Assembly (NCBI GenBank): GCA_016187935.1
Contig: JACPIU010000025.1
Span: 1 to 54,181 of the forward strand
DNA from: Bdellovibrio sp.
GTDB lineage: Bacteria; Bdellovibrionota; Bacteriovoracia; Bacteriovoracales; Bacteriovoracaceae
Direction: 5' to 3'
DNA: 54,181 nt
Within the stretch, counting starts at the first letter, position 1; each line of letters begins with the position of its first letter. A program made the position numbers and the translations under genes. A model generated the notes under the pieces. It worked only from the letters and a program-made list of their open reading frames with translations, did no database searches and was not told the origin of the DNA. Below are positions 194 through 19,306 of the stretch, in pieces.

Positions 194-252
194 CTTGATA
201 TCACAGATTAGAACATTCGTCTATTCTTGATATCACCGTTTGTGATATCAAG
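194..252. promoter_or_regulatory. Operator-like palindrome and half-site upstream of ORF6N gene
   Basis: CTTGATATCAC occurs at 194-204 and again at 226-236; the second copy is followed after five bases by its exact inverse GTGATATCAAG at 242-252. The arms are 11 bp and perfect. The site lies 36 to 94 bp upstream of the putative start of the minus-strand ORF6N gene, which fits a repressor-binding site. Which protein binds is an inference; autoregulation is the simplest guess. Confidence 0.55.
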
Positions 253-428
253 AATTTTCTCGTGCGGGTCTATACTCTATTGCCGTACCTCCCAGTCGTA
301 CTGAGTCGTACCGGCCCATCGATGTTGTGATTCAATAGAGTAATATTCCACTGTTAGCTAGCATATGCCCGAATTAGCCCAGCTCAGATATTTCTTTCGT
401 TTTAACCCATAAAATCGTACAGTTACAA

Positions 429-446
429 AATGCCCGAACTACCCGA
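429..446 (+). repeat. attL-like core repeat (left boundary of integrated element)
   Basis: AATGCCCGAACTACCCGA here is identical to 18481-18498, where it forms the start of mutM. An intact mutM at the right copy and a short stub at the left copy, with the integrase beside the right copy, are what integration into the 5' end of mutM would leave. Strand is given as that of mutM. Confidence 0.8.
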
Positions 447-604: not shown

Positions 605-1747
605 CTAAAGCGCCATTACTTTGTCCCTTAAAATATCATTGAAATCCACGCCGTAGTCGTACAAATCAAAAAATGCGGGTATCGACTCCGCGCTAAACCA
701 TTTTGAAATTCTCTTATCAGTACTGTCAAAAAGAAAAAAATGACCAAAGCAGAGACTCAACGGTTTTTCATTGCGAAGTGCCCACGCCCCTCGTACTACG
801 CTTTTATAAAGTGAAACTCTTGCAGCAATAACCTCAATTCTATCAGTAGAAGCGACAACAACGGGCTTCTGACCGCCGGTTTCCCCATGAGAACTACCAA
901 ACAGCAGCAAATGCACGATCTCAGAATCTACATTGTCCCTTGATTGACCATACTTCCCAAGTGAGAAGATTTGCTTAATGGCCCTCCTACGTTTCTGAAT
1001 TTTTGCTTTAAAGGTAATTAATTTATGAAATCGTGTTCTTCTGACCTTCAACTTCTTAGTCTGTAAATTCATCTTCCTATAGAGACGAACCCTATTGTAA
1101 AATGCCTTCGTATCTCTCCTTAGAATTTCATCCGACAAGTCTTTAGCTATCGACAAATATATTTTGGCAAAAGAATTATTTCTTGCATCAACAAAAAATG
1201 TATTTGCAGTATTCATTTGATAGGCAAAAACGTCCCGACATATAGATTTAGGATAAGCTTGACCGAGAACCTTCTCGAACGCAAACCAACTATGGAGTAT
1301 TTCAATGTAGGCGCTTACATCAGACAAATGTTGCCCAACCACTTCTTCAAAAATCCACATGCCCCGATTAACAAACTGTTTCTGTTTATCAAATTTTTCT
1401 TTTAAGTAATCCATTCCCAGGCGGGGCGATGATACGATTAAAGCATGATAATCCTCAAAAAGTTTTTTGATTAAGGATTCTACGCCTTCCAAGACTTTTT
1501 TATTTTTCTTATTCTTTGAATTTTCCTTAATGCTCTCAACGAGAGGTGGATGGGCTTTTACATCTGAAATAAAGGTTGGCCTTATGCCTATTGCCTCAAG
1601 AACCAAGTATGGTGAACTTTTAAAACGATACCCATCTTCAGAGAAAACCCTCGTTCTAAACACGGGGTCAAAAAGCAATTCAAATTCATCCTTATCAAGG
1701 TTGAATAAATGGCGAAGAATATTATTGTCTAGGTAAAGGAAGGACAT
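605..1747 (-). CDS. PIN-like domain protein of the DprA/PRTase operon (putative nuclease)
   Basis: This 380-residue protein has no clear full-length family that I can name. The start (LYLDNNILRHLF, Asp7) resembles the first strand of a PIN-type nuclease; Glu51 in SPYLVLEA, Asp274/Glu276 in DSEIVHLLL and Asp302 in VVVASTD fit the order of the other acidic residues of that fold. A basic, Lys/Arg-rich helical stretch (about 213-262) lies between the second and third acidic positions and could bind nucleic acid. It is the last gene of the compact minus-strand operon, 32 bp after the small ORF. No good ribosome binding site is visible before the ATG at 1747, which suggests coupled translation or a different start. 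A nuclease role is an inference from residue order only. Confidence 0.5.
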   Translation of the reverse strand: MSFLYLDNNILRHLFNLDKDEFELLFDPVFRTRVFSEDGYRFKSSPYLVLEAIGIRPTFISDVKAHPPLVESIKENSKNKKNKKVLEGVESLIKKLFEDYHALIVSSPRLGMDYLKEKFDKQKQFVNRGMWIFEEVVGQHLSDVSAYIEILHSWFAFEKVLGQAYPKSICRDVFAYQMNTANTFFVDARNNSFAKIYLSIAKDLSDEILRRDTKAFYNRVRLYRKMNLQTKKLKVRRTRFHKLITFKAKIQKRRRAIKQIFSLGKYGQSRDNVDSEIVHLLLFGSSHGETGGQKPVVVASTDRIEVIAARVSLYKSVVRGAWALRNEKPLSLCFGHFFLFDSTDKRISKWFSAESIPAFFDLYDYGVDFNDILRDKVMAL

Positions 1748-1779
1748 GCTTTTTTAAAATCGTGCCACTGTTGTAAAAT

Positions 1780-1893
1780 TCAATAAGGATCGCTGTTTGG
1801 CTCATTGTATTCAATACGGACAGAATTAAGTAGTTCTACGAAAAGAGATTCAATATCACTAATTTCCCTTCGTAATTTTTGAATATAATTCAT
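1780..1893 (-). CDS. 37-residue small protein between PRTase and PIN-like genes
   Basis: ATG at 1893-1891 opens MNYIQKLRREISDIESLFVE and the frame stops at 1780. The start lies three bases after the stop of the phosphoribosyltransferase gene, with AGGAG inside the end of that gene at a normal distance, so translation is probably coupled. The protein is a short amphipathic helix with charged and leucine/isoleucine positions in a heptad-like order, and an acidic tail. It could be a small regulator or antitoxin-like partner of its neighbours; no family is recognised. Its position and ribosome binding site are the main evidence that it is real. Confidence 0.6.
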   Translation of the reverse strand: MNYIQKLRREISDIESLFVELLNSVRIEYNEPNSDPY

Positions 1894-1896
1894 TTT

Positions 1897-2505
1897 TTAT
1901 GTTCTCCTGGCCCAAAACAAGCCAATAAGTTGGCCAGCAAATCCATTCTGACGAAGAAAATCCTTGTAGGCTTTAAAATGAGCACCAGTGGTTAGAACGT
2001 CATCAACAACAACAAGCTTATCTACAACTTCTGTACCAAAACCATTCCATTTATAGTTGCTCATGATTTGTTGGGGGTTGCGAGTTCCACCTGTATGCGA
2101 CGACAGTGCGCTCGTGATTTGGTCAATAGGAGAAACTGGTACAGTTCTAGGACGAAAACTTTTGAGTACGGTGAACAAATCTTCATATCGAAAACTATAT
2201 TCTGAATCAGATTTTATTTTTGATGCAGGTATTGCCGTTATGTGCAGGGGGCTAGCTGTTGTGTTGTTAATAATTACACTCAAATCGCCAGCAAACTTAT
2301 TGACCGCTTCATTACGATAACTCCATTCCGGCTCAACATTTCTTTTCAATCCTGATTTTTTAAAATTTAGAACATCTGAATTTATCACACCGGCAGCGTA
2401 ACCAGACCCACCACCTGTATACTCATACGCAAATCTGCAATCATCCTCTGACGTCAAGTAGGGATAAAATCCCAAAATTGTTTGATCAATTTTTTTCCAC
2501 TGCAT
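1897..2505 (-). CDS. ComF-like phosphoribosyltransferase
   Basis: This 202-residue protein carries the PRPP-binding signature of type I phosphoribosyltransferases, VVVDDVLTTGAH, at residues 165-176. The C-terminal placement and the following FWARR end resemble ComF-family proteins, but the usual N-terminal zinc-ribbon cysteines of ComF are absent; only one cysteine (Cys23) is seen. Such proteins transfer or bind ribose-5-phosphate groups of nucleotides. The start lies one base after the stop of the DprA-like gene, so the two are co-translated. In free-living bacteria comF and dprA both serve natural competence, but here they sit together as cargo of an integrated element beside Zorya, which points to a conflict role rather than housekeeping competence. 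The substrate cannot be told from sequence. Confidence 0.75.
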   Translation of the reverse strand: MQWKKIDQTILGFYPYLTSEDDCRFAYEYTGGGSGYAAGVINSDVLNFKKSGLKRNVEPEWSYRNEAVNKFAGDLSVIINNTTASPLHITAIPASKIKSDSEYSFRYEDLFTVLKSFRPRTVPVSPIDQITSALSSHTGGTRNPQQIMSNYKWNGFGTEVVDKLVVVDDVLTTGAHFKAYKDFLRQNGFAGQLIGLFWARRT

Positions 2506-2506
2506 A

Positions 2507-3406
2507 CTATAGCTCCTGACTCTGCAAATGATCTAAAATATCCTCAGTGGTTTTCACGCGAATCGCTCCTTTCGCCTCATAAGTCTTCGGCCAAGAAATA
2601 TCTTTCTTTTGGAAACAAGAATCAAGAATAAATAATTTTTTACCTTGTTGAATACATGCCCGAGCTTGCGTCAAGCTACCACTTGTGTCTGATGCTTCCA
2701 CAATGATCGTCGCTTCACTAATTGCTGCCATTGTTACATTTCTTCTTGGAAAATAAAATTTGTGATTGGGAAAACTCTCATGCTCATAACGGTAAAATGG
2801 AACCTGACTAATTAGAAGATAATCTCTCGCTATGCGATCCTGTAGCTCCATATTTTCTTTGGGGTAATATGCATCAATCGGAGTGCCAATAACACCAATA
2901 GTAATCCCATCTGCCAAGAGAGCTGTTTTGTGAGCTTCTGTATCCACTCCATAGGCCAAACCTGAAACAATCGTAAAACCACTTCCGGACAACTCTTTTG
3001 AAAGCCTTTTCGTGCGTTGAAGGCCTTCGCTGGATACTTTTCTAGCTCCAACAATGGAAACAGAGCGCGTCGTGAGCAAGTCCAAATTCCCTCGATAATA
3101 GAACATTTCAATAGGATGCTGAGCTTTTCTAAGGCCTTCAGGATATTGAAAATCTCCATGAATGCAGACATTAAACGTACCTATTTTCTTATCTATAAAT
3201 CGTTTTACATCGGTGCGAAGTGCAGCATCTTCGGGTAAAAAAGAGAGTTGATTTTGAAGAACTTTTGAAGGCAACACACCATAGGTTAAAAATAACTCTG
3301 TCATCTTCTTTTCAGTCATTCCCGGCTGGGCCCAGAGCGTCTCATACGAGATAATTTCCTCGTAAGGTGATATTATGTTGGTATCTTCTATTAATTCTTG
3401 TTCCAT
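2507..3406 (-). CDS. DprA/Smf-like Rossmann-fold protein
   Basis: The 299 residues include the hallmark motifs of DprA/Smf: VGARKVSSEG (119-128), SGLAYGVDTEAH (148-159), a GTPIDAYYP stretch (174-182), FPRRNVTMAA (219-228) and SGSLTQA (242-248). DprA binds single-stranded DNA and loads RecA in transformation; the wider SLOG group to which it belongs also contains nucleotide-binding proteins of conflict systems. An N-terminal helical region (1-70) precedes the domain and there is no long C-terminal winged helix. The gene is second in the minus-strand operon, 60 bp after the DUF2384-like gene and one base from the phosphoribosyltransferase gene. Because the window also shows that it rides on an element, it is probably not the genome's housekeeping dprA. 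Confidence 0.8.
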   Translation of the reverse strand: MEQELIEDTNIISPYEEIISYETLWAQPGMTEKKMTELFLTYGVLPSKVLQNQLSFLPEDAALRTDVKRFIDKKIGTFNVCIHGDFQYPEGLRKAQHPIEMFYYRGNLDLLTTRSVSIVGARKVSSEGLQRTKRLSKELSGSGFTIVSGLAYGVDTEAHKTALLADGITIGVIGTPIDAYYPKENMELQDRIARDYLLISQVPFYRYEHESFPNHKFYFPRRNVTMAAISEATIIVEASDTSGSLTQARACIQQGKKLFILDSCFQKKDISWPKTYEAKGAIRVKTTEDILDHLQSQEL

Positions 3407-3466
3407 GCTGTCCTCATTATCAAAAAACTAACTTACATGCTCGTTTTTTGTTTTATCAACGTTCAA

Positions 3467-3949
3467 TTAGGTCACTACTGAAACACCCTCTTCATATCCT
3501 AGCTTCGCTTGGAGCCATCTTATCAGTTCATGCCCCTTACCGAGCAAACAAACATCCAAAGGAGATTTGCCAAACAGTAGCTGACTTGGGGAGCAGAGCC
3601 ATTGCACTGTTTGCGCCTTCAATCTTTTAATTTGCTCTTTTGTCAATTCATGAAGCGCGATATGCCGAGTTTCAACGGTATCATATTTAAAAAGTTCGAA
3701 CGCCAAATCAGTAGCAAAAACAATTTGTAGAATTCCATTCTTTAGGTCTTTAAGGAGCTTGAGATCAATTTCGTCTTTGTATAGCAAAGGCCTTGAAAGA
3801 TTACATCTCACAGAGAACTCGACTTTCTCAAGGCCAGTTACGGAGAAAAATATTTTTGGACAGAATTTGGTCTTATCTGTAAGGGAAAGTATCCCTAAAA
3901 AATTAGGGAATTCACCACCCGGGCCTTTTTTAAGCTTCGAAGATGACAT
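3467..3949 (-). CDS. Protein with DUF2384 (MbcA/ParS/Xre antitoxin)-like C-terminus
   Basis: In this 160-residue protein, residues 117-155 (WLCSPSQLLFG, SPLDV, then LIRWLQAKLG) match the pattern of the toxin-binding domain of MbcA/ParS/Xre antitoxins: a WL, a P near the turn, sPl, and a helix ending near a glycine. The first 100 residues are not recognised, and I see no classical helix-turn-helix there. It is the first gene of the minus-strand operon and is preceded by two tandem 11-bp repeats, so it may be the regulator of the operon. A partner RES-type toxin is not visible in the window. Family assignment rests on a short stretch. Confidence 0.5.
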   Translation of the reverse strand: MSSSKLKKGPGGEFPNFLGILSLTDKTKFCPKIFFSVTGLEKVEFSVRCNLSRPLLYKDEIDLKLLKDLKNGILQIVFATDLAFELFKYDTVETRHIALHELTKEQIKRLKAQTVQWLCSPSQLLFGKSPLDVCLLGKGHELIRWLQAKLGYEEGVSVVT

Positions 3950-4470
3950 ATGTTAACTTAGGTGAACCATTAATATTGTATGTAAACGAAGTGTAAACCA
4001 AGTGTAGAAGCCTAGGCAATTAAAACTGTACTTTGGATTTTCGCTTGAAGTCGCTTATTGTCAAACATGGCTCGCCCCACAATAACTCTGGCCTTTTATC
4101 TTTATCACCTCAGCCAAATAAAACTACGGGTGGGGTTATAATAAAACAATACAGCCGTTAAGTTGACGCGATATTGAGCAAGACAACCAACTCCTACATT
4201 CTGTAGGGTCCCTTTCAGACTTTTTTAGTCGCCTTTAGGGGAAAGTTCTGTAGAGATTAGCAATAAAAATTTCTCCTTTCTTATCGAAATAATGCCATTA
4301 ACATTTAGTAAGTTATGCATAATTAATTTTCCAGATGAAAGACGATAATTCCATCTTTTGCCTCAAGTAAGCGACTTACGAAGACGATAATTAGACACCA
4401 CGAACACTACTACCATAGGTATTGCCAATTTCGAGACTTTCAATGCTGAAATAGGTAAGGGCAGGATTCA
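3950..4470. other. Divergent intergenic region between DprA operon and Zorya
   Basis: This 521-bp AT-rich stretch separates the two divergent defence operons and must hold both promoters. The clear structure in it is a tandem 11-bp repeat at 3982-4003. A small palindrome (GACT, five T, AGTC) lies near 4217-4230. No convincing ORF, tRNA or sigma-70 promoter could be picked with confidence. Confidence 0.6.
3982..4003. promoter_or_regulatory. Tandem 11-bp repeat, putative operator
   Basis: GTAAACGAAGT is followed directly by GTAAACCAAGT, one difference in 11 bp. The repeats begin 33 bp upstream of the start of the DUF2384-like gene and their 11-bp period places them on the same face of the helix, as expected for a dimeric or cooperative regulator. 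The bound protein is unknown; the DUF2384-like protein is a natural candidate. Confidence 0.45.
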
Positions 4471-13985: not shown

Positions 13986-15425
13986 ATGTCTCAAAATTCA
14001 AATAAGTCAGGCGGTTCGGACGGTGGATTCGATGTTGTTTCGCCTCTTGCAGACGTCATCAATGAAATTATTAAGATTCTAATAGAACTGCTGACAGTGG
14101 TTCTTGGAATTATTATTGCTTGGCTGGGTGTGCAAATAAAAAGAAAGTATTACGGCATCTATAATTCAAATCCAGTCACCCAGAAACATCTTAACTGCAA
14201 AAAAGTTGCCGTTGAGGAGGAGTATTTAGGCTACTCCGCAAGCAACAAGCGAAAGTTCTATCTGCAAGAACTCAATACCAAGAAGCACACAGCCGTCATC
14301 GGCTCTACCGGATCAGGCAAGACCGTATGCCTGCGAGTTTTAATTGATCATGCCCTGAGTATGGGTAAGCCTGTGATCTATTTTGATCCTAAGGCCAGCC
14401 TCGAATCGGTCGAGGTATTTCGGAAAATGTGTGAGAGGAGTGGCAAAAAACTTTATCTCTTCACAGATATTGCCGAGGATGCCACGGCCTTTAATCCTCT
14501 CCTTGATGGCTCATTGGACGATATTAGCGACCGAATCATCAATGCCTTGGATTGGTCGGAGCCTTTCTATAAGAATGAATCTATTCAAGCTCTGGATGAT
14601 GTATTGCAATGCCTGGCAGAAAGTCAGACCGTCATTACTCTCAAAAATATCCTGCTTGAGTTAGAAAAGCACAGTAACAAGAAAAATATCAAAGGCCTGG
14701 TCAATCAACTTGGCAAGGTCTCACGAAGTCCTTACGGCACGCTTCTCAATAATGAGTCAAAAGATGTCCTTACCTTCAACCGGCTTCGACTTAAAGATGC
14801 TTGCATCTACATTGGCATTTCATCTATGGGCCACAGCTCAAGTGGCCAAATCTTAAATAAAATATTCTTTGGAGGCCTGCTCACTCATGCCAAAGACTCG
14901 CTGATCGGTAAGGTGCCTGGGCTGCGCAATCCTGAGGCCAGACCTATGTCCATAATCTTTGATGAATTATCCAGCACGATCCACGAAGGATTTATTGATC
15001 TGCAAAACAAGTGCCGTCAGGCAGGGATGGAGATTACTTACGCCACCCAAGGGCCTTCGGATATTGATCGCATCTCGCCTATTTTAACCGCTCAGATTTT
15101 TGAAAATACCAACAACCTCTTTGTCTTTAATCAGATCGTCCCTGCTCATACGGAGTTCTTTGCTCGAACCTTTGGCACCGTCACATCTGATAAAAAGACT
15201 CATGTCATGGAAGATAATCGCAAGGGAGATGCAGGGTCAGTGCGTGAGGCGGAGGAATTTATGGTGCACGGTAATATCTTACGCAGTCTCCGAGTAGGCC
15301 AGTGCGTTCTCTTGCAACGCACACCCAAAAGGATAGACCTACTCAATATTAGAAATTGGGAGGGCCATATGACGTTAGAGCGTGGTGCAAGCAAACAAGG
15401 CAATGGTGCCCAGGCAATTTTTTGA
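13986..15425 (+). CDS. VirD4/TraD-like coupling ATPase
   Basis: The 479-residue protein starts with a short Gly/Ser-rich segment and one hydrophobic stretch (about 22-47), then an ATPase domain. Walker A is GSTGSGKTV (about 105-113) and Walker B is SIIFDELSS (about 322-330), followed by RQAGMEITYATQGPSDID, a pattern seen in TraD/TraG/VirD4 coupling proteins that select DNA for conjugative transfer. It is somewhat shorter than conjugative TraD and has few membrane helices. It is followed, 14 bp later, by a replication-relaxation-like gene, a pairing common on mobile elements. No relaxase or mating-pore genes are seen in the element, so it would need help from elsewhere for transfer, or acts in another way. 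Confidence 0.8.
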   Translation: MSQNSNKSGGSDGGFDVVSPLADVINEIIKILIELLTVVLGIIIAWLGVQIKRKYYGIYNSNPVTQKHLNCKKVAVEEEYLGYSASNKRKFYLQELNTKKHTAVIGSTGSGKTVCLRVLIDHALSMGKPVIYFDPKASLESVEVFRKMCERSGKKLYLFTDIAEDATAFNPLLDGSLDDISDRIINALDWSEPFYKNESIQALDDVLQCLAESQTVITLKNILLELEKHSNKKNIKGLVNQLGKVSRSPYGTLLNNESKDVLTFNRLRLKDACIYIGISSMGHSSSGQILNKIFFGGLLTHAKDSLIGKVPGLRNPEARPMSIIFDELSSTIHEGFIDLQNKCRQAGMEITYATQGPSDIDRISPILTAQIFENTNNLFVFNQIVPAHTEFFARTFGTVTSDKKTHVMEDNRKGDAGSVREAEEFMVHGNILRSLRVGQCVLLQRTPKRIDLLNIRNWEGHMTLERGASKQGNGAQAIF

Positions 15426-16911: not shown

Positions 16912-17160
16912 ATGATAAATCGGATCGACGCCAGTTACAAAGCTATACCGCCTCAGTACAATGCCTTGGGGGATAACACCCCCAGGCTCTTTTACAGCTT
17001 AATATGGGGTATAGATGAAGTTTGTAGTTTTACGCACTACTCTCGCGGAACAATTTACAATCTCGTAAGCCGAGGTGAGATTCCATTCTGCAAGCGTGGA
17101 CGTAAGAGAAGGCTGGTATTCATTCCAAGTGACGTGATTTCTTGGTTCAAAGGAGAATGA
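16912..17160 (+). CDS. Small excisionase-like helix-turn-helix protein (second)
   Basis: The 82-residue protein has the same winged-helix pattern as the gene before it: GIDEVCSFTHYSRGTIYNLVSRGEIPFCKRGRKRRLVFIPSDVISWF. An AGGAGGT precedes the ATG. Its 3' end carries AAAGGAG, the ribosome binding site of the integrase gene, so the pair is coupled. Two adjacent excisionase-like proteins may have divided tasks, for example one controlling excision and the other transcription. Confidence 0.75.
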   Translation: MINRIDASYKAIPPQYNALGDNTPRLFYSLIWGIDEVCSFTHYSRGTIYNLVSRGEIPFCKRGRKRRLVFIPSDVISWFKGE

Positions 17161-17162
17161 AT

Positions 17163-18398
17163 ATGAGTCGTAAAAACTACAAAAAAATTAAAGGCGTCCC
17201 GGGAATTTATCTTCACGCTGTCACTGGAAAATACTGTGCCGAAAAGAAAATTAACGGCAAGTTTCACAGTGCCAGCTTCGTCTCACTTTATGAGGCCAAG
17301 CAGTGGAGGAAAAATTTTAACGGGACAAACTATCAAGAAGATTCAAAAGATGGTGATTTTTCCACCTTGGCGGAAGTTTGGGGAGCGATGCAAAGGTATC
17401 ACTTTCCAAGTCTAGCGACCTCGACCAAAGCAATTTGGGTCAGAAGGTACTCGCTCTTAAGAGCACTAGAACATCTGCCAATGAATAGAATCACCCCCAC
17501 TCGAATCTCAGAGTGGGTTCAGCATTGGGTGGAACATTTCAGTTCCGAAGACTATGAAAGCTCAGGACGTGGACGGGCCGGAAGATGCAACCTCAACAAC
17601 GAACTCAATATGTTTGTGACCATTTTCAACTGGTACAAAGAAAGTGAGTATTTCGAAAAAGAGGCCATGCAACTCACCAGTCCGGTTAAAAAGAAGCATC
17701 GAAAACTTGGGTTTGTTAAACCTGTTCCTGACAAGAAAAGACAAATCAACGTCCAAGATGCCTTTTTGTTCTTTGAGTTTTTAAGGCCGCTCTACCGCGA
17801 TCTGGCCATGATGCAATTTTATACCGCCGGGAGGGTGGGAGAAGTTGCAGGGCTTCAGTGGAGCAATATCGACCTTAAAAATAAAAGGCTCCTCATCAAA
17901 CACACTTGTATCTGGGATTCTGGTAATAAAATGTTTGTAGAGCTAAAGCCCTTTCCGAAGAACCGTGAGCCGCGACCAGTCTTTATCACTGACGAGATCA
18001 TGGAAGTTCTTAAACACCGTCAGGCCTTCAAGCTTCCTAGCAACGACTATGTTTTCCATGTCGAGGGGCAACCACTTAACTACTGCACCATTCAGGTTCA
18101 TTACCGTGAAGGTCAGAGAAAAAGCGGAGTACCTTATACAGGAACTCATATCCTACGGCATGGAATGGCAAAGCTCGCTCGCCAAGTTGGAGGTGGACTC
18201 GATGCTGTCTTGGCCATGACTGGACACAAAGACCTGAAACTGGCCGATCACTATTCAAAATCTACCGAAGACGATCAAAAGCATTTTTCTGAGAAGATCA
18301 TGGAGCATATTCGTCGGCTCAAGCAGATGAACACTCCCGAGCTAGATTTTGAGAACGTGGTTAGTCTAAAACGTGTCAAGAATGGTACAAATGATTAG
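17163..18398 (+). CDS. Tyrosine recombinase (integrase)
   Basis: Starting at the ATG at 17163, six bases after AAAGGAGA, the protein has 411 residues. The N-terminal part contains a short arm-binding-like domain and a core-binding domain; the catalytic domain has the first Arg in AGRVGEVAGLQW, HILRHGMA, then GHKDLKLADHY with the nucleophilic Tyr. These are the R, H-x-x-R, H and Y residues of phage-type integrases. It lies 82 bp from the right att core at the start of mutM and most likely inserted the element there. Earlier in-frame ATGs are too near the ribosome binding site. Confidence 0.9.
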   Translation: MSRKNYKKIKGVPGIYLHAVTGKYCAEKKINGKFHSASFVSLYEAKQWRKNFNGTNYQEDSKDGDFSTLAEVWGAMQRYHFPSLATSTKAIWVRRYSLLRALEHLPMNRITPTRISEWVQHWVEHFSSEDYESSGRGRAGRCNLNNELNMFVTIFNWYKESEYFEKEAMQLTSPVKKKHRKLGFVKPVPDKKRQINVQDAFLFFEFLRPLYRDLAMMQFYTAGRVGEVAGLQWSNIDLKNKRLLIKHTCIWDSGNKMFVELKPFPKNREPRPVFITDEIMEVLKHRQAFKLPSNDYVFHVEGQPLNYCTIQVHYREGQRKSGVPYTGTHILRHGMAKLARQVGGGLDAVLAMTGHKDLKLADHYSKSTEDDQKHFSEKIMEHIRRLKQMNTPELDFENVVSLKRVKNGTND

Positions 18399-18480: not shown

Positions 18481-18498
18481 AATGCCCGAACTACCCGA
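18481..18498 (+). repeat. attR-like core repeat at mutM start
   Basis: This 18-bp copy of the core contains the ATG and first five codons of mutM. Integration therefore keeps the mutM protein intact but replaces everything upstream of its start with element DNA. Confidence 0.8.
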
Positions 18499-19306
18499 AG
18501 TAGAAACCATCCGCCAGCAACTGGTCACGTCTTTGCCCCTTAAGATTGAGGGCGTGGAATTTTCGCGTGTGGCGGAATCCATCATCAAAAAAAGCGATAG
18601 AAAAATTGATTTGGCGGGGAAAAAGATTTTGCAAATTCGTCGCGTGGGGAAATGGTTGGAGATGGTGCTTGATAGTGATGAGCGCATCCTTTCTCATTTG
18701 GGCATGAGTGGCTCGTGGCGTCTGTGGCAGAAGGTGCAAAATGAAAAGCATGCCCACGTTCTTATTCATGGAATACATCTGGAGGATGGACCGGTAATCT
18801 GGGCCTATGTGGACCCAAGGCGTTTTGGTAAAATGTATTTCATGTCAGGCGAGAAGGCCGAGCAGTTTAAATCTAAGTTGGGGATTGATGTCAGCTCGAT
18901 AGAATTTACTGTCGATTATGTTTGGCAAACCTTGAGAAAATATCCCGCACGGGCGATCAAGGCCTTTTTGCTGGATCAAAAATATTTTGCGGGGGTGGGA
19001 AATTATATCGCCTGTGAGATTTGTGCCCATGCTCGCATCCGACCTACTCGCAGGGTCAAATCACTCACCTTGGATGAAGTCAAAAAAATTCATGCGGCAA
19101 CGGGAATCGTCATCGCAGGCCAACTCCCCAAGGGCGGTCTCACCTTTCAAGGCGGATATCGAGATGCTTTTGGTGAGAAAGGCCAAGGGCTTGCTAACTT
19201 AGTGGTTTTTCACCAGAAAGTTTGTGGCCTCTGTCACCGGGGTAAAATCAAGAAAATCGTTTTGGCGCAAAGGGGAACTTTCTACTGTCCCAACTGCCAA
19301 AAATGA
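18482..19306 (+). CDS. mutM: Formamidopyrimidine-DNA glycosylase
   Basis: The 274-residue protein starts MPELPEVETIR, where Pro1 (after Met removal) is the catalytic nucleophile and Glu2 the second catalytic residue of Fpg. LSHLGMSGSW and DPRRFGKMYF follow, and the C-terminus ends in a zinc finger with CGLCHRGKIKK and CPNC. It removes 8-oxoguanine and formamidopyrimidines from DNA and cuts the strand. The ATG lies in the right att core of the element, so the promoter must come from element DNA; only a weak ribosome binding site (GAGATAAG) is visible. Expression could change when the element excises. Confidence 0.95.
   Translation: MPELPEVETIRQQLVTSLPLKIEGVEFSRVAESIIKKSDRKIDLAGKKILQIRRVGKWLEMVLDSDERILSHLGMSGSWRLWQKVQNEKHAHVLIHGIHLEDGPVIWAYVDPRRFGKMYFMSGEKAEQFKSKLGIDVSSIEFTVDYVWQTLRKYPARAIKAFLLDQKYFAGVGNYIACEICAHARIRPTRRVKSLTLDEVKKIHAATGIVIAGQLPKGGLTFQGGYRDAFGEKGQGLANLVVFHQKVCGLCHRGKIKKIVLAQRGTFYCPNCQK

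What the first reader, a model, noticed from the sequence alone, without database searches (positions are those of the whole stretch)
605..3949. Unnamed defence-like operon: DUF2384-like, DprA-like, PRTase, 37-residue protein and PIN-like protein
Five genes on one strand are packed with gaps of 60, 1, 3 and 32 bp, sit divergent to Zorya on an integrated element, and combine a nucleotide- or DNA-binding DprA-like protein with a PRPP-binding enzyme and a candidate nuclease. The family motifs are seen; the PIN and DUF2384 assignments are weaker. SLOG-type proteins and phosphoribosyltransferases are known in conflict systems, but this five-gene set is not one I can name. A simple model is nucleotide sensing or modification by DprA/PRTase and an effector nuclease held by the small protein.
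Basis: partly seen in the sequence, partly recalled or inferred. Interest (0 to 1): 0.85.

Follow-up and report, generated by a model that had tools for sequence, protein, structure and literature searches.

The report
Known ShosTA defence pair plus passengers
The core of this five-gene cluster is a short form of ShosTA, a phage-defence pair already named and studied in E. coli; here it sits in an 18-kb mobile element behind an orphan regulator-antitoxin gene and in front of a rare, probably nuclease-like protein, and that arrangement was seen in no other genome examined.

Summary
The five genes are real and the stated gaps (60, 1, 3, 32 bp) are exact. The set is not unnamed. The DprA-like protein is ShosA (PADLOC E 3.5e-83) and the PRTase is ShosT (E 2.7e-24). 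An AlphaFold model of the PRTase (pLDDT 92.7) matches solved ShosT and ComF structures. In 48 of 56 other ShosT loci examined, ShosA and ShosT are adjacent; none has the other three genes. The DUF2384-like protein belongs to the antitoxin family of RES-Xre toxin-antitoxin modules (relatives mostly sit directly before a RES gene), but the RES gene is missing here. It keeps an 11-bp-period repeat array upstream, conserved across that family, so it probably autoregulates the operon. The 380-residue protein has relatives only on Leptospira plasmids, without ShosTA; conserved acidic residues and a profile match to PIN support a PIN-like nuclease, but no reliable model was obtained. The cluster is cargo of an ~18-kb element integrated at mutM (18-bp direct repeat at 429 and 18481), which also carries Zorya I. 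Verdict: a new member of a known system with locally assembled neighbours. One functional five-gene machine is not excluded, but gene-order conservation does not support it.

The parts
3467..3949 (-). Orphan antitoxin/regulator of the RES-Xre (Xre/MbcA/ParS, DUF2384) family, 160 aa; no RES toxin gene next to it
   Evidence: Relatives of 23-44% identity in 10 other genomes of the phylum. Partner genes tested next to three of them hit Pfam RES (E 4e-11 to 1e-8) and one weakly (7.7e-4); several relatives pass or approach the PF09722 cut-off
3981..4006 (.). 11-bp-period direct repeats upstream of the antitoxin gene, candidate operator
   Evidence: TRF period 11, 2.4 copies, 93%; same period upstream of family members: lag-11 score 153 against shuffles 102 +/- 5.4; 77 control upstream regions never reach 14
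2507..3406 (-). ShosA, DprA-family antitoxin, 299 aa
   Evidence: PADLOC PDLC03961 E 3.5e-83; Pfam DNA_processg_A E 4.5e-56; PDB 9vzo ShosA E 1.7e-20
1897..2505 (-). ShosT, PRTase-fold toxin, 202 aa; PRPP motif VVVDDVLTTG at residues 165-174
   Evidence: PADLOC PDLC03962 E 2.7e-24; D168, D169 and G174 invariant in 30 homologues; AlphaFold2 pLDDT 92.7; Foldseek ComF 7p0h, ShosT 8zvd/8zvc/8zvb
1780..1893 (-). Small ORF of 37 aa, unknown; strong Shine-Dalgarno, no relatives found
   Evidence: Sequence; no family hit
605..1747 (-). PIN-like protein of 380 aa with a helical insert, candidate RNase or DNase
   Evidence: Leptospira plasmid relatives; D7, N9, E51, D271, D274, D302 conserved; profile match to PIN, score 28.0 against shuffles up to 13.7
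429..446 (+). attL-like copy of the 18-bp direct repeat AATGCCCGAACTACCCGA
   Evidence: Exact 18-bp match to the start of mutM
18481..18498 (+). attR-like copy of the repeat, at the 5' end of mutM (18482-19306)
   Evidence: mutM by Pfam
17142..18398 (+). Tyrosine integrase of the element
   Evidence: Pfam Phage_integrase E 4.3e-15
13986..15425 (+). TraD/HerA-like coupling ATPase of the element, shared with the elements in L037 and L067
   Evidence: Pfam T4SS-DNA_transf E 1.1e-6; phmmer E 1.4e-100 to L067
4471..12719 (+). Zorya type I (ZorA, ZorB, ZorC, ZorD), divergent to the cluster
   Evidence: PADLOC

Best explanation
The cluster is a short-form ShosTA toxin-antitoxin defence pair carried as cargo, with Zorya I, by an ~18-kb integrative element in a Bdellovibrionota genome. 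ShosT (PRTase fold with an intact PRPP motif) is the toxin. By the published E. coli work it acts as phosphoribosyltransferase/pyrophosphatase, unbalances purine nucleotides and damages DNA. ShosA (DprA-like, DNA-binding) counteracts it until a phage trigger tips the balance, giving abortive infection. The first gene is an orphan RES-Xre-type antitoxin that kept its own repeat operator and most likely serves as autoregulator of the transcript. The last gene is an independent PIN-like nuclease family that came to lie downstream and may add a second toxic or defence activity. Shown: the homologies, the fold of ShosT (by prediction), the repeats, the att repeats. Inferred: co-transcription, regulation by the first gene, nuclease activity, and defence in this host.
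For: ShosA/ShosT models; solved ShosA and ShosT matched; adjacent ShosA-ShosT in 48 of 56 loci and no locus with the other three genes; pairs on plasmids and in a P2-like phage stand without them; published mechanism (PMC12593503) and defence by a DprA-PRTase pair against T7 and lambda (PMC9122126). First gene: relatives; RES partners; 11-bp repeats. PIN-like. Element. Related elements carry ShosTA (L037) or RES-Xre (L067) beside their integrase.
Against: ShosT here is about half the length of the crystallised ShosT chains (202 against 393-424 aa), and its sequence does not match them detectably, so transfer of the detailed mechanism is not certain. No expression or toxicity data. The first gene lacks its usual RES partner, so its remaining function is a guess. 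Tight spacing and a shared strand fit a single five-gene unit equally well.
Confidence: 0.8

Rival explanations
1. A true five-gene defence system: ShosTA supplies sensing and toxicity, the DUF2384 protein regulates or co-neutralises, and the PIN-like protein is a second effector restrained by the 37-aa protein.
For: One strand, gaps of 1-60 bp, Shine-Dalgarno before the small ORF. Some other ShosTA pairs have a further gene overlapping the end of shosT by 4 bp: a trypsin-like protease in L034 and a 224-aa protein in L116, so downstream accessory genes do occur.
Against: No second instance among 56 ShosT loci; 380-aa relatives live without ShosTA and without a 37-aa gene; relatives of the first gene live without ShosTA, mostly with RES toxins.
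Confidence: 0.15
2. Three independent cargo modules side by side: a decayed RES-Xre module (antitoxin only), a complete ShosTA pair, and a 37-aa/PIN-like pair that is its own toxin-antitoxin module.
For: Each part has its own family and its own contexts elsewhere. Related elements carry RES-Xre or ShosTA in the slot next to the integrase.
Against: Nothing shows the 37-aa protein is an antitoxin; it has no relatives and no counterpart on Leptospira plasmids. The close spacing suggests one transcript.
Confidence: 0.3
3. The DprA and PRTase genes are competence genes (DprA with ComFC), not defence.
For: ComF is the best structural match of the PRTase (7p0h) and TIGR00201 comF gives a weak sequence hit.
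Against: The DprA scores below the dprA equivalog cut-off (164.9 against 191.15) but strongly on ShosA. Homologous pairs lie on plasmids, in phages and in integrative elements.
Confidence: 0.04

Closest known systems
ShosTA (E. coli; Kimelman 2012 and Pu 2025 as cited in PMC9122126 and PMC12593503; PDB 8zvb, 8zvc, 8zvd, 9vzo)
   Same: DprA-like antitoxin next to a PRTase-fold toxin; PADLOC models for both; same fold as solved ShosT; intact PRPP motif.
   Different: ShosT is 202 aa here against 393-424 aa in the solved chains; no detectable sequence match between the two ShosT forms; extra genes on both sides.
DprA-PRTase pair of P2-like phages (Rousset 2022, PMC9122126; 'DprA-PPRT' in PMC11291487, my equation of the two names is from memory)
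   Same: Two-gene DprA plus PRTase on mobile elements; short-type pairs found here in a P2-like phage and on E. coli plasmids.
   Different: I did not have the tested protein sequences, so direct identity was not measured; no flanking DUF2384 or PIN-like gene is described there.
RES-Xre toxin-antitoxin modules (antitoxin PF09722, toxin PF08808)
   Same: The first gene belongs to the antitoxin family and shares the 11-bp-period upstream repeats.
   Different: No RES toxin gene follows; ShosA takes that place. A ~20-residue insert sits before the toxin-binding region.
PIN-domain nucleases (PF01850 and relatives)
   Same: D7-N9, E51, D271/D274 and D302 follow the PIN order of acidic residues and are conserved in Leptospira relatives.
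   Different: No Pfam PIN model hits even at E 10; a ~200-residue, probably helical insert splits the motif.
RqlHI / PsyrTA (PMC4670107)
   Same: DprA-family protein restrains a toxic PRTase domain.
   Different: The PRTase there is fused to a RecQ-like helicase; here it is a stand-alone short protein.

Membership tests
ShosTA | DprA-family antitoxin ShosA | tested here: met
   PDLC03961 E 3.5e-83; ShosA 9vzo E 1.7e-20
ShosTA | PRTase toxin ShosT adjacent to ShosA | tested here: met
   PDLC03962 E 2.7e-24; 1-bp gap; same adjacency in 48 of 56 loci
ShosTA | PRTase fold with PRPP-binding motif | tested here: met
   Model pLDDT 92.7; matches ShosT 8zvd/8zvc/8zvb and ComF; D168, D169 and G174 invariant
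ShosTA | ShosT of the size of the solved E. coli-type protein | tested here: not met
   202 aa against 393-424-residue chains; size is not known to be a defining feature, and PADLOC's ShosT model PDLC03962 is 237 positions long
ShosTA | Toxicity of ShosT, rescue by ShosA, phage defence | not testable with these tools
   Needs expression and phage assays
DprA-PRTase pair of P2-like phages (DprA-PPRT) | Homology to the experimentally tested pair | not tested
   The tested protein sequences were not at hand; related pairs are in a P2-like phage and on E. coli plasmids
RES-Xre module | Xre/MbcA/ParS antitoxin | tested here: met
   Direct PF09722 hit is below cut-off (E 0.28), but 36-44% identical relatives pass or approach it and precede RES genes
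RES-Xre module | Adjacent RES toxin gene | tested here: not met
   Next gene is ShosA; the only RES hit in the genome is on another contig
PIN-domain nuclease | Ordered conserved acidic residues | tested here: met
   D7, E51, D271/D274, D302 conserved against 24-26% identical relatives
PIN-domain nuclease | PIN fold or a significant PIN-model match | tested here: inconclusive
   hhalign score 28.0, E 4e-4, strongest in the N-terminal half, against shuffles up to 13.7; no Pfam hit; AlphaFold without relatives failed, pLDDT 33

The most novel reading that the evidence does not exclude
An orphan RES-Xre antitoxin with its repeat operator has been captured as the regulator of a ShosTA pair, and a PIN-like nuclease has been added downstream as a second effector, making a composite, doubly toxic defence operon not described before.
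Probability: 0.15. Interest if true: 0.5.

Novelty: new member of a known kind. Interest (0 to 1): 0.3.

Why it matters
It places short-form ShosTA in Bdellovibrionota integrative elements, in one case with Zorya, and removes an apparently unnamed system from the list. It leaves two testable points: whether an orphan RES-Xre antitoxin can regulate another toxin-antitoxin pair through a conserved 11-bp repeat operator, and whether the rare family shared with Leptospira plasmids is a PIN nuclease.

Tried and rejected
AlphaFold of the 380-aa protein alone gave pLDDT 33 and was not used. Genome scans for that protein found nothing in the phylum: only the protein itself reached E <= 0.001 in 369 genomes, and the weaker hits are short, low-scoring and often interrupted by stops, so I took them as chance. 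Viral contigs and genome contigs pattern scans found nothing. Pfam with the helical insert removed gave no PIN hit. A ShosT-family search over the phylum rings in most genomes because it also catches ComF-type and other PRTases, so only the best-scoring loci were used. Competence (DprA-ComF) was considered and rejected.

Full report
Observation. The window is a whole contig of 54,181 bases. The genome belongs to Bdellovibrionota: locus L068, from a Bdellovibrionales assembly, is the same 38,179-base contig as one in a genome listed as 'same phylum'. The cluster lies near the contig's left end.

Core. The 299-aa protein hits PADLOC ShosA at E 3.5e-83 and the 202-aa protein hits ShosT at E 2.7e-24. 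Pfam gives the DprA domain at E 4.5e-56 but only a sub-threshold PRTase hit. An AlphaFold2 model of the 202-aa protein with 30 sequences in the alignment has pLDDT 92.7. Its best PDB matches are ComF (7p0h) and three ShosT structures (8zvd, 8zvc, 8zvb) at E 2e-6 to 3e-4. The motif VVVDDVLTTG holds D168, D169 and G174, invariant in the 30 sequences. The DprA-like protein matches solved ShosA (9vzo) at E 1.7e-20. The ShosT chains in the PDB are about twice as long, and no sequence match to them was found, so this is a short form. A DprA-PRTase pair from P2-like phages protects against T7 and lambda (PMC9122126). A review reports that ShosT acts as phosphoribosyltransferase and pyrophosphatase, disturbs purine pools and leads to DNA duplications, filamentation and death, that ShosA binds DNA and counteracts it, and that T7 Gp0.7 is a trigger (PMC12593503). 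I transfer this mechanism by homology.

Neighbourhood test. I compared 56 loci from the phylum, genome contigs, plasmids, a phage and viral contigs. A few are the same or nearly the same sequence held twice, so the number of independent loci is somewhat lower. ShosA and ShosT are adjacent in 48; in the other eight no adjacent pair was scored, some being cut by a contig end. In none does a relative of the 160-, 37- or 380-aa protein occur. Some pairs have a different gene overlapping the end of shosT by 4 bp, such as a trypsin-like protease in L034.

First gene. The 160-aa protein has relatives in 10 other genomes of the phylum. In nearly all of the 11 loci read, a 121-313-aa gene follows on the same strand within a few bases or a short overlap (L062 is the clear exception); four such partners were tested and hit the RES domain, three above cut-off and one just below. 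In the window the RES gene is absent, and the only RES hit in the genome is elsewhere. Upstream regions of the family show direct repeats of period 11: summed lag-11 score 153 in 11 regions, against 102 +/- 5.4 in shuffles (maximum 119 of 2000) and 88-114 at all other lags. Among 77 other upstream regions from the same loci the best lag-11 score is 13, whereas 8 of the 11 family regions score 14 or more. The lag and span were chosen after looking at the sequences, so the strength is somewhat overstated, though the control regions were scored in the same way. The window copy is at 3981-4006. Autoregulation through these repeats is an inference.

Last genes. The 37-aa ORF has a good Shine-Dalgarno but no relatives. 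The 380-aa protein first showed a weak hit on a Leptospira plasmid, which proved a full-length relative: 26% identity over the alignment, pairwise E 7e-9. Eight more Leptospira plasmids carry it. The neighbourhoods read there have no ShosTA and no 37-aa gene. D7, N9, E51, D271, D274 and D302 are conserved. A profile of the family against 21 PIN proteins scores 28.0 (E 4e-4), against at most 13.7 in 20 shuffles and at most 17.2 with unrelated families; the match is strongest in the N-terminal half. No Pfam PIN model hits, and the single-sequence model failed. PIN-like is therefore likely but not proven.

Element. An 18-bp exact repeat AATGCCCGAACTACCCGA lies at 429-446 and 18481-18498, the second at the start of mutM, with a tyrosine integrase just before it. 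Between the repeats are the cluster, Zorya I, a sigma-like protein, a TraD/HerA-like ATPase and the integrase. The ATPase and the following protein have relatives in L037, where ShosTA lies next to an integrase, and in L067, where a RES-Xre pair lies next to an integrase. So both kinds of cargo occur in this element family, which gives a simple route to the mixed cluster seen here. The empty site was not demonstrated; in the nearest relative the contig breaks just before mutM.

Verdict. The finding is a short-form ShosTA pair, a known kind of defence system, flanked by an orphan RES-Xre antitoxin and a probable PIN-like protein. A functional five-gene unit is possible but unsupported by gene-order conservation.

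Noticed in passing
window 429-446 and 18481-18498: 18-bp direct repeat at the 5' end of mutM delimits an ~18-kb integrative element that carries ShosTA and Zorya I; a degenerate third copy lies at 356-379.
   Followed up: partly
L057, L058, L060-L062, L065-L067, upstream of the antitoxin genes: 11-bp-period direct repeats upstream of RES-Xre-type antitoxin genes in Bdellovibrionota, with period conserved while sequence varies.
   Followed up: yes
L132-L135: A family of unannotated ~308-aa PIN-like proteins on Leptospira interrogans plasmids, related to the window's 380-aa protein.
   Followed up: partly
L034:4220-5014: Trypsin-like protease gene overlapping the end of shosT by 4 bp; a possible accessory gene of another ShosTA pair.
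   Followed up: no
L116, downstream of shosT: A 224-aa protein of unknown kind begins with a 4-bp overlap at the end of shosT.
   Followed up: no
L038 and L039: ShosTA copies in which shosT (L038) or both genes (L039) are split over several reading frames, apparently decayed.
   Followed up: no
window 223-255: Perfect 14-bp inverted repeat ATTCTTGATATCAC/GTGATATCAAGAAT left of the element, between a truncated ORF6N gene (3-158) and the 429 repeat.
   Followed up: no
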